From: an uncultured Bacilli bacterium
GTDB taxonomy: Bacteria; Bacillota_I; Bacilli_A; RF39; UBA660
Direction: 5' to 3'
DNA: 35,930 bases
Assembly: GCA_949439935.1 (NCBI GenBank)
Contig: CASRZA010000005.1
Span: 1-35,930 of the forward strand
Below, piece after piece: positions 1 through 21,843 of this stretch. Made by a program: the position numbers and the translations under genes. The stretch's first letter is position 1, and each line of letters starts with the position of its first letter. A model generated the notes under the pieces. The model saw only the letters and a list, made by a program, of their open reading frames with translations. It searched no databases and was not told where the DNA came from.

Positions 1-2
1 AG

Positions 3-95
3 AAATTCGAAAAACTTAAAGAAAAATATTCGGCGAATTTTGTAGAATATTTAGCCTATCATTTGAACATTTTAGAAGAAATGTATGACATGTAA
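3..95 (+). CDS. 3' end of a truncated CDS (…KFEKLKEKYSANFVEYLAYHLNILEEMYDM*), product unknown
   Basis: Open frame from the window edge to TAA at 93-95. Confidence 0.45.
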   Translation, partial: KFEKLKEKYSANFVEYLAYHLNILEEMYDM

Positions 96-109
96 AAATT
101 TTTTCGAAT

Positions 110-136
110 TCTTTTCACTCACACTTTTTAAATTAC
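110..136. repeat. Left copy of 27 bp target-site duplication (TCTTTTCACTCACACTTTTTAAATTAC)
   Basis: Identical to 4928-4954; abuts the outer edge of IS copy 1. Confidence 0.85.
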
Positions 137-926
137 TGTCAATAGTTTTTGAAAATGTCCTAAATTTTTATAAACATAAGCGGAAAAATTTATTCCAATT
201 TCCTTTTGACAAGCAGAAACATTTTATTGATTAAACGTCGTATTAATTATCAATTTTCAAAAAATGAAAATTAATAATTAAACTCCTAAAAAGGTATCAA
301 ATGTTTCTTTACTTGGTCAAAAGTTTTTTCGGCATAAAAATCCGCTTAAACATATTGATGAGAAGTGTGAGACATTTCTATTTGTCTTTGAAAAGAAGAA
401 ACTTTCCATGGATGTGTCATAGGTGGAATGTATTTTTTCTTTTCTTTTTTTTTTTCAGCTATTACTTCATCAAATTCTTTTGAAACTTTTGTATTTCTTT
501 CTAGTTTTTTTAATTCATAAACTTGCTCATCAATAGTTACTAGTAACGCTTCATCAAAGGCTTGTATGACAAGGCATTTTGTTTTAGGAAGAAAGCATTT
601 AAGTTCTCCATTTAGATATGGTTGATAGTATTCATTTTTAAACTTAATAGAGTTTCCATTATCAATTTTTCTAGGAGTAAGAATTGCTAGAGTATAGTTG
701 ATAGTTTCTTTAGACGGTTAATTTGCCGTATGGATAGATTGAGCTTTTTACTAGCTCTGTTTTTATTTCCATTGTGATTAACAAGTTCTTTGATCACATC
801 ATATTTTAATTGTTCATTCATTCTTAATTCAACCTTTCTCATTTCGTCACCTCAAGTGACATATTGTATATTAGTTTTGGGACATAATCAAATACTAACA
901 CTTAAGACATTATCATATACTAATCA
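137..926 (-). mobile_element. Internally deleted ISNCY/IS1202-type insertion sequence, copy 1
   Basis: ~790 bp direct repeat of 4136-4925 (constant offset 3999; one mismatch noticed, 916 T vs 4915 C); encodes transposase N- and C-terminal remnants on minus strand. Confidence 0.85.
346..842 (-). pseudogene. ISNCY-type transposase remnant: N-terminal HTH (MRKVELRMNEQLKYDVIKELVNHNGNKNRASKKLNLSIRQINRLKK, 842-687) joined out of frame to a C-terminal part (TPRKIDNGNSIKFKNEYYQP…YIPPMTHPWKVSSFQR, ~685-346); catalytic core missing
   Basis: Reverse-complement translation; remembered family motifs 'HNGNK.RA…L..S.RQINRL' and 'TPRKIDNG…PPMxHPWK.xSF'. Confidence 0.8.
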
Positions 927-955
927 CTATAAAAAGGCGATTATTAGACTTTTTC

Positions 956-984
956 TTGTCAAAACCCATTATATTGTTTATAAT
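956..984 (+). promoter_or_regulatory. Promoter of cargo gene 1: TTGTCA - 17 nt - TATAAT
   Basis: -35 at 956-961, -10 at 979-984. Confidence 0.75.
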
Positions 985-1009
985 AACACTCAAGAAAAGA
1001 GGAACACTG

Positions 1010-1777
1010 ATGACAAAAACAAAAGTAGATTACTGGGGGTTGAGACATATTTTTAGAAAAAATGGCAATGGAAAAAAGTTCGATAAAGTAATTCTACACG
1101 TTATAAACAGTTTAAATGCGGACTTTATTCGACAAGAAGTATTTCGATGTGTTGAATTCATCGAAGATTTCGAGTTACAAAAAGAAACTATTGACTGTTT
1201 AACAATTATACAGACATATTTGCTTATACGCCTCAAAGCGCAACCGAGGGATTTATTGCTCGCACACCTGGTTCGTTCGGAAGAAGCACGAAAAGAGTTT
1301 AGCGCTTTATACGAAAACGGTAACATCAGTATAATAGGATTCTTTATGGAAATATTTGGGAAAATGCCTTTAAATCAAAGAATAGATTTCCTTTACGAAA
1401 ATGATAGCTATCTGGCATTATTTCGAGAAGCAAAAGAAAAGATACAATCTCTTCAACATTTTGGATATGAAGATTATGAAAATTTTGAAAAAGCCGTAAA
1501 AGAATTTCTCGAATTCATCATAAAAAACGGTTATCCACATCTTTCTTTGGCTATGGATTTGATTCCTTTATTATATGAAAATCGATTTAAGATATTAAAC
1601 GAATGGATTAAAGAAGAAAAAGCACTGGAACTGGACATTTATGCATTGCCCTTTTTAGAGGATACTGTTTCACAGAACGAAGATGACTTGTATATTGAAA
1701 AATTGCAAAAAAGAGGACTAATAGGACCAGAGCACCCCTTAACCATAACTCCGGTTTCCGGTGATGATAAACAATAG
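1010..1777 (+). CDS. Cargo gene 1: uncharacterised, mostly helical ~255 aa protein (MTKTKVDYWGLRHIFRKNGNG…)
   Basis: ORF-track start at 956 overlaps the -35 box; ATG 1010 has an AGAGG-like RBS and follows the promoter. Confidence 0.8.
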   Translation: MTKTKVDYWGLRHIFRKNGNGKKFDKVILHVINSLNADFIRQEVFRCVEFIEDFELQKETIDCLTIIQTYLLIRLKAQPRDLLLAHLVRSEEARKEFSALYENGNISIIGFFMEIFGKMPLNQRIDFLYENDSYLALFREAKEKIQSLQHFGYEDYENFEKAVKEFLEFIIKNGYPHLSLAMDLIPLLYENRFKILNEWIKEEKALELDIYALPFLEDTVSQNEDDLYIEKLQKRGLIGPEHPLTITPVSGDDKQ

Positions 1778-1795
1778 AAGAAAAAAGTATATAAT

Positions 1796-1815
1796 GGAGT
1801 GATATGCTCCTTTTT
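1796..1815 (+). terminator. Rho-independent terminator after cargo gene 1 (GGAG…CTCC-TTTTT)
   Basis: Stem-loop followed by T run. Confidence 0.6.
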
Positions 1816-2460
1816 GTTTTAATACAATTTATAAAAAAATACGCTCTGTTCTAGATTGTAAGGGGTGAGTAATCATAATCTGCATAGACAGTGCTAAAAT
1901 CAATACCTGATGTATTATCATAAATGTTACTTGATGTGACATTACATTTTTTTTCAATTGATTTTTTCATCATGGCTAAAGGCTGTTTCAAAATTTGAGT
2001 AGTATAATTTATAAGATTTTGAAAATATGAGAGTAAGAACCATAAAGAGTATGAATAACTTAAATATGATGCTTACAATACATTTAGGGCATATAGCCTT
2101 TATAGCAGATAAAATCAACAAGAATCTACTTACGATAAAGATAATATATGCAAGTAAATCACTTAAGCAAAAAAGCATAGTGTGGTTAAGTCAAATAGCA
2201 AAAGGTATAAAAAATATATTAGCCTATGCTCATGATGGTCTTAAACAATGGCAACATATAGAAAAAAGTGAGTTTATTCAGTTAGAATTGAGGCTATAGT
2301 CATAATCTAATCTTATATTAGAAAAAACGGGCACTTCAAGTGTCCGAGCATATCGTGAAATAATTTTTATTTTCTCAATATTGTCAACATTAATTTTTAT
2401 TTTTTTATGGTCGAGCTCCCATGTTTTTCAGAAAATACCTAAACTTAAATTTTTAAGGAC

Positions 2461-2488
2461 TTGACGGTTTCAAGAAAAACTGTATAAT
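2461..2488 (+). promoter_or_regulatory. Promoter of cargo gene 2: TTGACG - 16 nt - TATAAT
   Basis: -35 at 2461-2466, -10 at 2483-2488. Confidence 0.75.
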
Positions 2489-2511
2489 ATTTGAAAAAGG
2501 AAGCGGTACGT

Positions 2512-4035
2512 ATGCAATATTATCTAACGAAAGGCCATAACGATGGAGAAATAATCATATATAAGAGAAATAAAAGTGGTATTGTAGAAGCTTATACAAA
2601 TACTGAGTTTGAAGAGCCATTGGTAAAATACATGACTCTTCCATATCTTGAGTTTCAAAGAAGATGGAAAGCTAACATCGATTCTGGTGATTTCGTTGAA
2701 GAATTTAAATTTGAAGATGGCATTCTGCATACGGAGTGTTTTATATTTTCTAAAAGTAGTGCAGAGTACTCTTTTGAAACATGGGACTATGAAATTGCAC
2801 TCAGTCTTTATCAAGACGAAGTCTTTAAAGCTATCCTGGATTCACTGTTAAAAGATTATGCAGAGGTATCCGAGAAAACAAAGGAAAATATAAAAAATCT
2901 AAAATCTAACATCAAGAAAATAGGTACCTATTTGAATGCTATATGGGCTTATTTTAAAAATGGTAATTTGGGACAACGCGATGAGTCTTTTATAAGCGAA
3001 CTGTATGATTATATCATTAATAATAGAGAAGGATTAAGAGATTTTTTTGGTAAAGAGATAATGAAAATTAGACATCCGTTTCGAAGTTTTTTTGGTAAAG
3101 AGAATTTTATGGTAACTATGGTCCTTTCATTCATTTGTTCTTTGATAAGCTTGTTTTTTAGTATGCTTTTGGGTTTTATGGATGATTGGATACTTGTTAA
3201 AATTTCTGCAGGATGTGTGGCTCTAAGTTTAGGTGGAGTTCTCGGTGGAGGATTCGCATTAAACAACAATTTCGTCAATGATTCTTTCGAAAAACTGTAT
3301 AGTGAACTAGTAGATGCTGTGGGGAAAGAAAAAGAAAAAACCGAAAATCTAAGTGTCACTCTCGACGAAAAGGATTTGACCCAAGAAGCTTTTTTAAGAT
3401 GTATCAAAAAGGCGAGCTCTTATATGGACAAACATCGTGAAGCCGATTTTTCTTGTGAAGCGCAGGCGTTGTATCATCTAGTACAAGACTATAAAGAAGC
3501 TTTAAAAAAAGGGGAAGTCGACAGATTTCAATTTTTAAGTACGTTGACAAAACTTGAGCTAAGTATTTACTCGAAATCGGCGTCTGACTCTATGAAATAT
3601 GCCTCTGTTAAGGAGTATATGGAGCAGAGATTAGAAGACCGATTGGAGTTTTTAGGACTTTCAGAAATTGCGAATATCAAAGACGGAAATCTCAAGGATG
3701 TTTATAATACGATTAAAAGGGTTTTAAGTTTTCCTTATGACGGGTGTGAAAGAGAAATCGTAGAGCTATTTCAAATAGCAAAAGACTATGTCGAAGAAAT
3801 GCAAGGAACCGAACCGAGTAGTACATTCGGTTGTACTCCAGCATCGGGGAAAATGATTAAAAGAGTTGCTCAGGTGGAACAGCGTATCGTAGAAGGTATA
3901 AACCGTTTCATCGACCATTCCAATTTAACAGAAGATTTAGTAGCGATACAAAGGGCTTTAACTACAGCGGGTATCGAAGCAACAACTGAGGAGTCTTCTC
4001 ACGAACCAGTGACAGGAACTCCTATGCAAATGTAA
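2512..4035 (+). CDS. Cargo gene 2: uncharacterised 507 aa protein with charged/helical arms and a central transmembrane hairpin (FMVTMVLSFICSLISLFFSMLLGFMDDWILVKISAGCVALSLGGVLGGGFAL)
   Basis: Long ORF; ATG 2512 preceded by AAAAGGAAG; upstream TTG 2491 is too close to the -10 to be the start. Confidence 0.85.
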   Translation: MQYYLTKGHNDGEIIIYKRNKSGIVEAYTNTEFEEPLVKYMTLPYLEFQRRWKANIDSGDFVEEFKFEDGILHTECFIFSKSSAEYSFETWDYEIALSLYQDEVFKAILDSLLKDYAEVSEKTKENIKNLKSNIKKIGTYLNAIWAYFKNGNLGQRDESFISELYDYIINNREGLRDFFGKEIMKIRHPFRSFFGKENFMVTMVLSFICSLISLFFSMLLGFMDDWILVKISAGCVALSLGGVLGGGFALNNNFVNDSFEKLYSELVDAVGKEKEKTENLSVTLDEKDLTQEAFLRCIKKASSYMDKHREADFSCEAQALYHLVQDYKEALKKGEVDRFQFLSTLTKLELSIYSKSASDSMKYASVKEYMEQRLEDRLEFLGLSEIANIKDGNLKDVYNTIKRVLSFPYDGCEREIVELFQIAKDYVEEMQGTEPSSTFGCTPASGKMIKRVAQVEQRIVEGINRFIDHSNLTEDLVAIQRALTTAGIEATTEESSHEPVTGTPMQM

Positions 4036-4036
4036 A

Positions 4037-4069
4037 AGATTTTCTAATTTTAAATTAGAATCTTTTTTC
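4037..4069 (+). terminator. Terminator after cargo gene 2 (AAGATTTTCTAATTT TAAATTAGAATCTTTTTT)
   Basis: Long inverted repeat plus T run. Confidence 0.75.
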
Positions 4070-4135
4070 TTTAAAGAGAAATGTCTAGAAGCTTTCTTTT
4101 TGGCGATTTGGCGTGGTTCCTTGGACGATTTTTGT

Positions 4136-4925
4136 TGTCAATAGTTTTTGAAAATGTCCTAAATTTTTATAAACATAAGCGGAAAAATTTATTCCAATTT
4201 CCTTTTGACAAGCAGAAACATTTTATTGATTAAACGTCGTATTAATTATCAATTTTCAAAAAATGAAAATTAATAATTAAACTCCTAAAAAGGTATCAAA
4301 TGTTTCTTTACTTGGTCAAAAGTTTTTTCGGCATAAAAATCCGCTTAAACATATTGATGAGAAGTGTGAGACATTTCTATTTGTCTTTGAAAAGAAGAAA
4401 CTTTCCATGGATGTGTCATAGGTGGAATGTATTTTTTCTTTTCTTTTTTTTTTTCAGCTATTACTTCATCAAATTCTTTTGAAACTTTTGTATTTCTTTC
4501 TAGTTTTTTTAATTCATAAACTTGCTCATCAATAGTTACTAGTAACGCTTCATCAAAGGCTTGTATGACAAGGCATTTTGTTTTAGGAAGAAAGCATTTA
4601 AGTTCTCCATTTAGATATGGTTGATAGTATTCATTTTTAAACTTAATAGAGTTTCCATTATCAATTTTTCTAGGAGTAAGAATTGCTAGAGTATAGTTGA
4701 TAGTTTCTTTAGACGGTTAATTTGCCGTATGGATAGATTGAGCTTTTTACTAGCTCTGTTTTTATTTCCATTGTGATTAACAAGTTCTTTGATCACATCA
4801 TATTTTAATTGTTCATTCATTCTTAATTCAACCTTTCTCATTTCGTCACCTCAAGTGACATATTGTATATTAGTTTTGGGACATAATCAAATACTAACAC
4901 TTAAGACATTATCACATACTAATCA
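4136..4925 (-). mobile_element. Internally deleted ISNCY/IS1202-type insertion sequence, copy 2
   Basis: Direct repeat of 137-926. Confidence 0.85.
4345..4841 (-). pseudogene. ISNCY-type transposase remnant, same internal deletion as copy 1
   Basis: Identical coding remnant at offset 3999. Confidence 0.8.
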
Positions 4926-4927
4926 AA

Positions 4928-4954
4928 TCTTTTCACTCACACTTTTTAAATTAC
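4928..4954. repeat. Right copy of 27 bp target-site duplication
   Basis: Identical to 110-136. Confidence 0.85.
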
Positions 4955-4983
4955 TTGTAATTTAGATGGCATTCTATTATAAT
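4955..4983 (+). promoter_or_regulatory. mutS promoter: TTGTAA - 17 nt - TATAAT
   Basis: -35 at 4955-4960 and -10 at 4978-4983, upstream of mutS. Confidence 0.65.
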
Positions 4984-5006
4984 AATTAATCGATGAGGTA
5001 CAGACT

Positions 5007-7559
5007 ATGAAAATGAGCGAAGTAAACTATGAAGAATTGAGCCCGATGATGAGGCAATATTATGATATTAAAAAGAATTACCAAGGGATTCTTCTTTTTT
5101 ACCGTCTCGGAGATTTTTATGAATTATTTTTTGAAGATGCTGAAATCGTCAGTAGGGAACTAGGCCTTACATTGACGGGAAAAAATGCCGGTTTAAAAGA
5201 ACGAATTCCGATGTGTGGAGCACCACACCATTCGATTAAAACCTATATTCAAGAAGCTTTGAGTAAAGGATTCAAAGTCGCGATATGCGAACAGATGGAA
5301 GATCCAAAAACGACCAAAGGCATGGTCAAAAGAGAAGTGACTGAAGTCATAAGTAAAGGAACGATGACTGATCTAGAATTTTTAGATAACAAAGACTTTA
5401 ACTACTTGGGAAGCATTTTAGAATACCCTTCTAGTTTTGTAGTGACGTATGCTGACATCTCGACAGGAGAACTGAACACCTGTACTATCGATAAAGATGA
5501 AACTAAATTGTTAAATATAATCATCAACAATGGATTTAAAGAAGTTGTCATGAACAACGAAGTAAATGCAAAATTAGAAAACACGCTTAAAAATGTATAT
5601 GGAATAGATACTTCGCGTTTCGATGAACTTTACGATAAAGAGCTTCCATTTACTGAAGGTCTCGATCTAAAAAGCATCAAGGGAATACGACATATCTTAT
5701 ATTATCTATGTATAATCGAACTAAAAGACATAAGTCATTTTGATAAAGTCAACGTTCAAGATGCAGATGAATATTTAAACATGGATATCCACACTATAAG
5801 AAACTTAGAGTTATTTGAGACTCTCAGGATGAAAGAAAGACAAAATTCATTGTTGTGGTTGATCGACAAATGTAAGACGAGCATGGGTTCTAGACGCCTT
5901 AAAGCATGGATGTTGAAACCTTTAAGAAATAAAAGTAAAATTGAAGCTCGATACGATAAAGTTGCAAAATTGAATGAAAGCTTTCTAGAAAGAAGCGAAC
6001 TCTTGGACGCTTTATACGAGGTTTATGACATCGAGAGGTTATGTGGAAAAATCACGTGTGGAAGTGCAAACGCTCGGGATCTTTTGCAACTAAAAAACTC
6101 TTTAAGAGTACTTCCCACTATAAAAATGTTGATCGAAAAGCTAGAGTTTGAATACAATATAGACACTTTTGAAGAACTGTTCCAGTCGATAGAAAATGGA
6201 ATAAACGAAGATGCTCCCATCACTCTTCGTGACGGATATTTAATAAAAGACGGCTATGACGTTGAACTAGACGAACTAAAAAAAATTCGTTCAGGTGGAA
6301 AAGATTTTATAAGTTCTATTGAACAAAAGGCCAAAGAGCTGACGGGAATTCAAAATTTAAAAGTCGGTTATAACAAAGTATTCGGTTATTTCATAGAAGT
6401 TACCAATTCCAACAAAGACAAAATAAAAGATGAATTCGGTTGGATTAGAAAACAGACTCTCGTAAACGCAGAGAGGTACATAAGTCCCGAATTAAAAGAA
6501 AAAGAGAGTTTGATACTCAATGCGGAAGAAAAGATCATAGAATTAGAATATTCGCTTTTCACCGAAATACGTTCTAAGGCAAAAAAACAAGTGCATAAAC
6601 TTATGAATTTAGCCCAAAACATAAGTGAAATAGATGCTCTAGTAAGCCTATCTATTGCCAGTGAAGAATTGAGATTATCAAGACCGATCTTAAACGACAA
6701 CAATGTCGTCGATATAAAAAATGGAAGACACCCAGTTGTCGAACACGTAAGTGACAAAGAGTATGTGCCAAATGACATAAAAATGCCGAATGAAATAGAT
6801 ACTCTCCTCATCACGGGACCGAATATGAGCGGAAAAAGCACTTACATGAGGGAGATGGCGATCATAGTAATCTTAGCTCAAATGGGGTCGTTCGTACCTG
6901 CCGATCGAGCTGACATTCCTATCTTCGATAAGATTTTTACGAGAATTGGCGCATCCGACGATTTAGTAAGTGGAGAAAGTACGTTCATGGTCGAGATGAA
7001 AGAAGCGAACAACGCCATCTCGGGAGCAACGAAAGACAGCCTTATCCTCTTCGACGAACTCGGTCGTGGAACCGCCACGTACGACGGCATGAGTTTGGCG
7101 GCCTCTATCCTCGAATATATCAATAAAAAAATAAAGTGTAAGACGATGTTTTCTACACACTATCACGAACTTACTATATTAGAAAACGAAATTTCGACTA
7201 TCAAAAACGTCCACGTAAGTGCTAAAGAACAAGACGGAAACGTATATTTCTTACACAAGATCGAAAACGGTCCAGTTGACAAGAGTTACGGCATACACGT
7301 TGCAAAACTTGCGGGACTGCCAAGCTCCTTAATCGAAAGAGCTAATGAAATTTTAGAAGATTATGAGAAAAAAGATCAAAGCATCAAGAATGACACGAGT
7401 CAAATCAGTTTCGATTTTGAAGAAAAAACAAAACCTACTACAGGCATCTCAAATAAACTGAAAGACTATATCGAATCGCTAGATCCGAACTCTATATCTC
7501 CAAAAGAGGCTTTGGATATCGTATACATTATAAAAGAACTGTCGAATGAAAATGAGTGA
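5007..7559 (+). CDS. mutS: DNA mismatch repair protein MutS
   Basis: MMRQYYDIKKNYQ…LLFYRLGDFYELFFEDA N-terminus; Walker A TGPNMSGKSTYMRE; FDELGRGTATYDG. Confidence 0.98.
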   Translation: MKMSEVNYEELSPMMRQYYDIKKNYQGILLFYRLGDFYELFFEDAEIVSRELGLTLTGKNAGLKERIPMCGAPHHSIKTYIQEALSKGFKVAICEQMEDPKTTKGMVKREVTEVISKGTMTDLEFLDNKDFNYLGSILEYPSSFVVTYADISTGELNTCTIDKDETKLLNIIINNGFKEVVMNNEVNAKLENTLKNVYGIDTSRFDELYDKELPFTEGLDLKSIKGIRHILYYLCIIELKDISHFDKVNVQDADEYLNMDIHTIRNLELFETLRMKERQNSLLWLIDKCKTSMGSRRLKAWMLKPLRNKSKIEARYDKVAKLNESFLERSELLDALYEVYDIERLCGKITCGSANARDLLQLKNSLRVLPTIKMLIEKLEFEYNIDTFEELFQSIENGINEDAPITLRDGYLIKDGYDVELDELKKIRSGGKDFISSIEQKAKELTGIQNLKVGYNKVFGYFIEVTNSNKDKIKDEFGWIRKQTLVNAERYISPELKEKESLILNAEEKIIELEYSLFTEIRSKAKKQVHKLMNLAQNISEIDALVSLSIASEELRLSRPILNDNNVVDIKNGRHPVVEHVSDKEYVPNDIKMPNEIDTLLITGPNMSGKSTYMREMAIIVILAQMGSFVPADRADIPIFDKIFTRIGASDDLVSGESTFMVEMKEANNAISGATKDSLILFDELGRGTATYDGMSLAASILEYINKKIKCKTMFSTHYHELTILENEISTIKNVHVSAKEQDGNVYFLHKIENGPVDKSYGIHVAKLAGLPSSLIERANEILEDYEKKDQSIKNDTSQISFDFEEKTKPTTGISNKLKDYIESLDPNSISPKEALDIVYIIKELSNENE

Positions 7560-8658: not shown

Positions 8659-8727
8659 AACTCTTCTTTTTTTCAAAGATCTTGATAATATGAATTTTAT
8701 ATGATAAAATCAGTTTATAAATTTTTG

Positions 8728-8919
8728 ACGGAAGACACGATTTTAATAGGCTAGAGACAAAAGAGATTTAGTGGATGGTGCAAACTAAACTGGCTTGTTA
8801 AGATTACTACTTCTCGAAAGAGCTAATAAGCTACGAATAACTCCCGTTAAAGAGTATAAAAGTTAAATAATAGGATGGTACCGTGCATTTAAACGCACTC
8901 CTTGAGTACTGTCCTTTTT
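8728..8919 (+). promoter_or_regulatory. T-box leader of thrS with antiterminator/terminator
   Basis: AGGA-TGGTACC-GTGC…GCAC-TCCT antiterminator with T-box bulge; competing terminator AGGATGGTAC (8872-8881)/GTACTGTCCT (8906-8915)+TTTT; start boundary approximate. Confidence 0.88.
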
Positions 8920-8964
8920 GTTTACCAAAGTCAAAAATTTAAATGCCGAAAAGGAGGCGAATTC

Positions 8965-9066
8965 TTGGAAGAACGAACATTTAAAAACATTAAAAGGAAA
9001 GATAGAACATCTTCCAAAAAAAGCCATTTTAACTTTATAAAAAATAGAAACGAGGAAAAACGATGA
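8965..9066 (+). CDS. Putative 33 aa basic leader peptide (TTG start; MEERTFKNIKRKDRTSSKKSHFNFIKNRNEEKR), stop overlapping thrS start (ATGA)
   Basis: AAGGAGG at 8951-8957, 7 nt before TTG; open to TGA 9064-9066. Confidence 0.4.
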   Translation: MEERTFKNIKRKDRTSSKKSHFNFIKNRNEEKR

Positions 9067-21161: not shown

Positions 21162-21497
21162 ATGTACGAAGTAGATATCAAATTGACTCCAGAGGATATA
21201 TTGGACAAAGAATTTAAGTTTGATACTAAAGGTTATCGGCCTAAAGAAGTCGACGAATACCTCGATATGATAATCGAAGATTATAAAGAGTTCATCCGAC
21301 TTGTCAAAAAGTTAGATAAAGAGAATCATGAATTAAAAGAAGAAAACAACAATCTCACTAATGAAGTTAGAAAACTCAAGATTTCTCTCGAAGCTCAAGA
21401 AGAAAGTGAATCGACGGGAAAATTTGGAACGAGCAATGTCGATATCCTTAAGAGAATTTCTAATCTTGAAAAGATCGTATACGGAAAGAATGAATAA
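21162..21497 (+). CDS. gpsB: Cell-division protein GpsB/DivIVA family
   Basis: LTPEDILDKEFKFDTKGYRPKEVDEYLDMIIEDYKEF; adjacent to rnpB as in Bacillus. Confidence 0.88.
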   Translation: MYEVDIKLTPEDILDKEFKFDTKGYRPKEVDEYLDMIIEDYKEFIRLVKKLDKENHELKEENNNLTNEVRKLKISLEAQEESESTGKFGTSNVDILKRISNLEKIVYGKNE

Positions 21498-21843
21498 TAC
21501 TCGGACAAACGCTGGTAGTGCATGCTACTTGAGGAAAGTCCTTGCTCACTCAGTCTGTGATGACTGGTAATGTTTGTGCTAGGGGAATGAATAACCCTAG
21601 GCATGTTTTACATGACGGCTTCGAAAAAACCTATCCATGGTTTGACTAGATATAAAAGTGCCAAAGAGACGAGTCTTACTGGAAACGGTAAGAGTGGAAC
21701 GTGGTAAACCCCGCAAGTGAGAAACCCAAATTTTGGTAGGGGAGTCTCGAGTGAAGAAACGAATTTAACTCGAGGTTTAGACTCTGTCTAAAAGATAAAT
21801 GTTTGTCACCCGAAAGGGTACAGAACAAGGCTTATAGAGTATT
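21496..21843 (+). ncRNA. rnpB: RNase P RNA (type B)
   Basis: GAGGAAAGTCC, GAGTGGAACGTGGTAAACCCC, GAGAAACCCAAATTTTGGTAGGGG, ACAGAACAAGGCTTATAG; P1 AATACTC/GAGTATT. Confidence 0.97.

What the first reader, a model, noticed from the sequence alone, without database searches (positions are those of the whole stretch)
110..4954. Composite-transposon-like unit of two core-deleted ISNCY/IS1202-type elements, bracketed by a 27 bp target duplication
Seen: 137-926 and 4136-4925 are direct repeats (~790 bp, one mismatch noticed). The 27-mer TCTTTTCACTCACACTTTTTAAATTAC sits just outside the left copy (110-136) and just outside the right copy (4928-4954). No matching duplication exists at either inner IS edge, so the outer 27 bp belongs to the whole unit rather than to two separate insertions. 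Knowledge: IS1202-type ISNCY elements are known for unusually long target duplications of about 27 bp. Inference: the ~4.8 kb unit with its two cargo genes moved as one block, with transposase supplied in trans.
Basis: partly seen in the sequence, partly recalled or inferred. Interest (0 to 1): 0.8.

Follow-up and report, generated by a model that had tools for sequence, protein, structure and literature searches.

The report
Promoter-targeting mobile DNA bracketing two genes
Two stripped-down copies of a jumping gene flank a pair of genes just upstream of the mutS promoter, and comparison with about 100 related insertions shows that this class of element, whose target had been reported as not found, inserts at a fixed distance from gene promoters.

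Summary
Two direct 790-bp repeats (137-926, 4136-4925; one mismatch) are core-deleted IS1202-type (ISNCY) elements. The 27-mer (110-136, 4928-4954) is the only other exact repeat of that length in the window. Full-length relatives carry the same 27-28 bp duplication in the same geometry, so the outer repeat is a genuine IS1202-type target duplication. That the 4.8-kb unit moved as one block is plausible but not shown. A single IS insertion followed by recombination with an IS+cargo circle gives the same sequence, and so does a loop in a short-read assembly. In 77 of 98 distinct flanks of related IS, the best sigma-A promoter match starts 25-29 bp from the IS right end, in one orientation (8% in shuffles; P about 5e-65). 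Finished genomes from several families repeat the pattern. The window's duplication ends exactly at the mutS -35 box, and the left copy's inner end sits 27 bp from the promoter of the first cargo gene. Harmer et al. 2023 (PMC10132070) reported no target for this long-duplication subgroup. Promoter targeting is known only for unrelated Mutator-type elements (TnGBS, ISLre2, some ISKra4; PMC3942029).

The parts
110..136 (+). Left copy of the 27-bp target duplication (28 with T137)
   Evidence: Exact repeat of 4928-4954; same geometry as single full-length IS copies
137..928 (-). Left IS1202-type element, core-deleted, transposase remnant on the minus strand; inner terminus AATCACT instead of AATCAAA
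929..955 (+). 27-bp spacer between the left copy's inner end and the ORF1 promoter: single remaining copy of what would be that insertion's own duplication
   Evidence: Geometry as in 77 of 98 related ends; no second copy found in the genome or genus
956..984 (+). Promoter of cargo ORF1, TTGTCA-N17-TATAAT (11 of 12)
1010..1777 (+). Cargo ORF1, 255 aa, no known family
2430..2449 (+). Terminus of a second, multicopy IS, 11 bp upstream of the ORF2 promoter
   Evidence: Same 54-55 bp shared with five contig ends
2461..2488 (+). Promoter of cargo ORF2, TTGACG-N16-TATAAT (11 of 12)
2512..4035 (+). Cargo ORF2, 507 aa, member of a genus-restricted family found in tandem arrays (two hydrophobic segments read from the sequence)
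   Evidence: Paralogues 20-30% identical in own genome (C9, C22) and in G002 and G004
4136..4927 (-). Right IS1202-type element, same core deletion, complete right terminus AATCAAA
4928..4954 (+). Right copy of the 27-bp target duplication, ending at the -35 box of mutS
4955..4983 (+). mutS promoter TTGTAA-N17-TATAAT, the target feature
5007..7559 (+). mutS, gene downstream of the targeted promoter

Best explanation
The unit is a pair of non-autonomous, core-deleted IS1202-group elements in direct orientation that bracket 3.2 kb with two genes. SHOWN: the family, the common deletion, the exact 27-bp outer duplication, and that the duplication ends at the -35 hexamer of the mutS promoter. SHOWN by comparison: related elements insert in one orientation with their right end about 27 bp upstream of a sigma-A -35 box, so the duplicated 27 bp is the -36 to -62 region of the target promoter and each insertion leaves that promoter and its upstream region intact. 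INFERRED: a transposase encoded elsewhere joined the left end of the left copy and the right end of the right copy and inserted the whole 4.8-kb unit at the mutS promoter. INFERRED: the unit arose from two earlier insertions of the same derivative at a donor locus, one of them at the ORF1 promoter. INFERRED, not tested: the transposase recognises the promoter, perhaps occupied by RNA polymerase.
For: Full-length relatives: single 1.55-1.70 kb IS with exact 27-28 bp duplications and the same ends. The nearly identical IS in congener G004 has a 27-bp duplication across contigs C21/C10. Transposase family NF033594, E 1e-109 to 1e-110, and family-typical Q seven residues after the catalytic E (criterion from PMC10132070). 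Promoter rule: best promoter match at offset 25-29 in 77 of 98 distinct right flanks, against 5 of 89 windows 400 bp further on and 8% of shuffles; P 5e-65. Finished genomes and other families: 17 of 25 (26-33 bp duplications) and 5 of 6 (15-19 bp), controls 8.8%. The best plus-strand promoters in 1-5100 include exactly 956-984 and 4955-4983. Outer ends pair with a 28/28 duplication, inner ends do not.
Against: No occupied/empty pair for the whole unit. No transposase source in the assembled genome (91% complete). The inner terminus of the left copy lost its conserved last bases, so at least one junction is not pristine. The outer duplication would look the same if a lone IS had inserted first. 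About 20% of right flanks lack the promoter at the expected offset, and the 37-39 bp duplication group has its -10 box about 10 bp from the duplication instead.
Confidence: 0.52

Rival explanations
1. A single core-deleted IS first inserted at the mutS promoter, making the 27-bp duplication. Later a circle carrying one IS and the cargo, formed by recombination between two IS copies elsewhere, joined it by homologous recombination across the 790 bp.
For: Gives the identical final sequence, including missing inner duplications. Needs no transposition of a 4.8-kb unit. IS copies are 99.9% identical, good recombination substrates. Inner flanks look like two different insertion sites.
Against: Needs an extra recombination step and a circle not seen in the assembly. 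Equally lacks a donor locus.
Confidence: 0.3
2. Assembly artefact. The chromosome has one IS at the mutS promoter, and the cargo-IS sequence exists as a separate circle or as an array, merged because the two form a simple loop in the assembly graph.
For: Other repeats in this genome break contigs with 54-55 bp overlaps, as in a short-read k=55 assembly. The only resolved repeat is one that forms a closed loop. No reads or coverage available.
Against: The C4915/T916 difference and the differing terminal dinucleotide are each tied to their own flank, so two distinct IS-flank junctions exist. The cargo has no plasmid gene.
Confidence: 0.13
3. The promoter association reflects only survival: insertions elsewhere were lost, so IS are found in intergenic DNA that naturally contains promoters.
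For: Insertions at promoters are upstream of genes and probably harmless; most flanks lead into a same-strand ORF (63 of 85).
Against: The offset is fixed to 27 +/- 1 bp, the orientation is constant, and windows 400 bp away show no signal. Selection alone does not set a single base position.
Confidence: 0.05

Closest known systems
IS1202 subgroup of the IS1202 family (IS1202, ISSeq2; ISNCY in ISfinder), PMC10132070
   Same: Transposase family, length of intact element, 27-28 bp duplication, subterminal repeats, TGT left end, Q seven residues after the catalytic E
   Different: Window copies are core-deleted and paired around cargo. Harmer et al. found no conserved target for the long-duplication members; here a promoter target is found
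TnGBS / ISLre2 and some ISKra4-group elements (Mutator-type), PMC3942029
   Different: Unrelated transposase family; reported distance 13-17 bp rather than 27 bp; here the distance equals the duplication length
Composite transposons such as ISApl1-mcr-1-ISApl1 (Tn6330), PMC5821093
   Same: Two direct IS copies around cargo, duplication outside the unit
   Different: Neither IS copy here encodes a transposase; movement of the unit has not been observed
ISAjo2 subgroup of the IS1202 family, PMC10132070
   Same: Same wider family, site-directed insertion
   Different: 5-bp duplications and dif/pdif targets, not promoters

Membership tests
IS1202 family, long-duplication (IS1202) subgroup | ISNCY/IS1202-type DDE transposase | tested here: met
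   Full-length relatives over the NF033594 cut-off; window copies keep 66-77% identical N- and C-terminal remnants
IS1202 family, long-duplication (IS1202) subgroup | Unusually long target duplication (16-28 bp) | tested here: met
   27 bp (28 with T) in the window; 27-28 bp in relatives
IS1202 family, long-duplication (IS1202) subgroup | Q at the seventh position after the catalytic E | tested here: met
   E288...Q295 invariant in alignment A1 of full-length relatives
IS1202 family, long-duplication (IS1202) subgroup | Outer ends 5'-TGT ... ACA-3' | tested here: inconclusive
   Left end TGT in both copies; outer right end AAA; inner right end of the left copy ACT
Composite transposon | Two IS copies flanking cargo with one duplication outside the unit | tested here: met
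   Only the outer ends pair with a 28/28 duplication
Composite transposon | The unit moves as one block (occupied and empty sites, or assay) | tested here: inconclusive
   mutS promoters of 7 congeners lack the IS but share no 27-mer; no strain of the same species available
Composite transposon | Functional transposase in one IS or supplied in trans | tested here: not met
   No NF033594 match over the cut-off in the genome; only the remnants. Draft genome, so absence is weak evidence
TnGBS/ISLre2/ISKra4 promoter-targeting Mutator group | Mutator-type transposase | tested here: not met
   Transposase is ISNCY_2, weak similarity to IS481
[quoted passage not shown]
   27 +/- 1 bp, right end next to the promoter

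The most novel reading that the evidence does not exclude
The long-duplication IS1202 elements are a second, independently evolved lineage of promoter-directed DNA transposons. Their transposase recognises a promoter, possibly with RNA polymerase bound. The duplication is long because it spans the upstream promoter element, so each insertion regenerates the whole target and further copies can stack at the same promoter.
Probability: 0.5. Interest if true: 0.8.

Novelty: new variant of a known kind. Interest (0 to 1): 0.62.

Why it matters
The 2023 study that defined the IS1202 family examined the long-duplication members and found no conserved target, noting too few independent insertions. About 100 independent insertions here give a clear rule: one orientation, 27 bp upstream of a sigma-A -35 box. 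It explains both the odd duplication length and how these elements spread with little harm. It predicts which genes they sit beside (for example a transcript next to cfr(D) on an Enterococcus faecium plasmid). It turns an unexplained property into one testable with a small insertion library.

Tried and rejected
Empty site in congeners: mutS promoters of seven congeners were read; none carries the IS, none shares the 27-mer, and the upstream genes differ, so no test of block movement. Donor-site search for the inner flanks (929-955, 4108-4134; 3 mismatches): only the window's own copies. Left contig flank 1-136 elsewhere: no useful match. Cargo relatives in named genomes: none. IS transposase relatives in viral contigs: none. 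Cargo function: no Pfam, NCBIfam or PADLOC match; AlphaFold model of ORF2 (pLDDT 73, pTM 0.41) has no significant PDB match. Two independent insertions sharing a 27-mer by chance: rejected. Promoter signal as composition effect: rejected by shuffles and windows 400 bp away. Searches returned errors and no result. dif-like targets were not tested beyond inspection.

Full report
OBSERVATION. The two 790-bp repeats are real (137-926 and 4136-4925; one mismatch, T916/C4915) and their identity stops at exactly those ends. The 27-mer at 110-136 and 4928-4954 is exact, a 28th base (T) also matches, and it is the only other exact repeat of at least 27 nt in the window. Testing all pairs of IS ends, only the two outer ends have a matching flank (28 of 28), the inner ones do not. 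The window is the entire contig C5 of a 109-contig, 1.43-Mb draft genome, 91% complete. Its named family-level relatives are uncultured Bacilli genomes: for example the 23,913-bp contig of relative G033 has the same length as, and carries the same element as, CACYFN010000034.1, 'uncultured Erysipelotrichaceae RUG11890'.

FAMILY. Full-length relatives in the same bacterial family encode 430-466 aa transposases that match NF033594 transpos_ISNCY_2 (E 1e-109 to 1e-110) and only weakly IS481. The window copies keep the N-terminal 44 residues and the C-terminal ~120 residues; about 300 residues (roughly 900 bp) are missing and the junction is out of frame. Intact relatives measure 1.55-1.70 kb and are flanked by exact 27-28 bp duplications in the same geometry. 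In congener G004 the nearly identical IS (98-100% over the ends) shows TCCGACACAAAAAGAGACTTAAAACCA on both sides, on contigs C21 and C10. This matches the long-duplication IS1202 subgroup of PMC10132070 (IS1202 27 bp, ISSeq2 28 bp), including the Q seven residues after the catalytic E.

TWO CORRECTIONS. The right terminus is AATCAAA, two bases longer than the repeat: all four G004 right ends and the window's outer right end read so, and full-length relatives read AATCANA. The left copy's inner end reads AATCACT, with altered terminal bases.

TARGET RULE. Reading outward from the right end, the window gives 27 bp, then TTGTAA-N17-TATAAT, the mutS promoter (4955-4983). The left copy's inner right end gives 27 bp, then TTGTCA-N17-TATAAT, the promoter of ORF1 (956-984). 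A separate consensus scan lists these two and 2461-2488 among the best plus-strand promoters of 1-5100. The same holds in relatives. Over 98 distinct right flanks (near-duplicates removed) the best promoter match starts at offset 25-29 in 77. Windows 400 bp further on give 5 of 89, dinucleotide shuffles 8%, and outward left-end flanks 6 of 32; binomial P about 5e-65. The flanks are independent sites but come from related elements, so the P value is descriptive. Most lead into a same-strand reading frame (63 of 85). In other families of the class, mostly finished genomes, duplications of 26-33 bp (17 of 25) and 15-19 bp (5 of 6) end at a -35 box, against 8.8% of control windows. Two Enterococcus plasmid copies have their -10 box 50-51 bp from the IS end (E. 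casseliflavus EC291, E. faecium E8014; read by eye). A group with 37-39 bp duplications (G434, G194) instead has TATAAT about 10 bp beyond the duplication in several copies. A transposase tree places promoter-associated copies in several clades.

MECHANISM. The staggered cuts would fall at the upstream edge of the -35 box and 27 bp further up, so the duplicated DNA is the -36 to -62 region. After insertion the promoter again has its natural upstream DNA, and the target is regenerated. One locus shows the expected consequence: two full IS copies stacked as duplication-IS-duplication-IS-duplication-promoter (L111). That contig is a short-read assembly, so it needs confirmation. Whether the transposase reads DNA shape, sequence or bound RNA polymerase is not known.

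THE UNIT. The outer duplication proves that an IS1202-type insertion happened at the mutS promoter. It does not prove that the cargo came along. Three histories fit: transposition of the unit from its outer ends (favoured, as the single-step history); a lone IS insertion followed by homologous integration of an IS+cargo circle; or an assembly loop. Evidence that would separate them was looked for and not found: no second copy of the inner flanks, no empty site, no intact transposase. In this genome no contig ends in this IS, unlike G004, where seven left ends and at least four right ends lie at contig edges with no transposase assembled. So G000 may really lack a full-length copy and the unit may now be immobile.

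CARGO. ORF1 (255 aa) has no known family. ORF2 (507 aa) belongs to a fast-evolving family of about 450-510 aa found, among 98 genomes, only in this genome and two congeners, often in tandem. The cargo thus looks native to the genus. Its function remains unknown.

LITERATURE. In the held open-access library, PMC10132070 states that long-duplication members showed no conserved target and that independent data were lacking. PMC3942029 describes sigma-A promoter targeting for TnGBS, ISLre2 and ISKra4-group elements, all Mutator-type. Searches for IS1202 with promoter or target terms found no report of this rule. Subscription papers and preprints are not covered, so priority cannot be claimed.

Noticed in passing
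window 2395-2449; L005-L010: A second multicopy IS end (...AGAAAATACCTAAACTTAAA) in the same genome lies 11-13 bp upstream of TTGNNN-N16/17-TATAAT in all seven copies seen. This resembles the known ISLre2/TnGBS geometry, but its transposase was not recovered.
   Followed up: partly
L111 4945-8100: Two complete IS1202-type copies in tandem with the same 28-bp duplication before, between and after them, upstream of one promoter.
   Followed up: partly
L273-L275, L284-L286: IS1202-family members in other families of the class make 37-39 bp duplications, with TATAAT about 10 bp beyond the duplication.
   Followed up: partly
L200 (NZ_LR135354.1): An IS1202-like element on an Enterococcus faecium plasmid sits upstream of a promoter leading towards cfr(D) at the same offset.
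   Followed up: partly
G000 C9, C22; G002 C60; G004 C1: ORF2 belongs to a divergent family in tandem arrays, found in three species of one genus; N-terminal beta domain predicted.
   Followed up: partly
window 8710-9060: Leader of thrS looks like a T-box (GGATGGTACCGTG...), yet Rfam at gathering threshold reports only RNase P class B at 21497-21839.
   Followed up: no
G000 C32:10207-10287 (L003): An 81-bp left-end remnant of the same IS, 99% identical, internal to a contig.
   Followed up: partly
L245 (G445 C1): Two tandem IS copies share one 26-27 bp flank, but the outer right flank is a different 27-mer next to TTGACA-N17-TATAAT: a likely product of recombination between copies or of assembly.
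   Followed up: no
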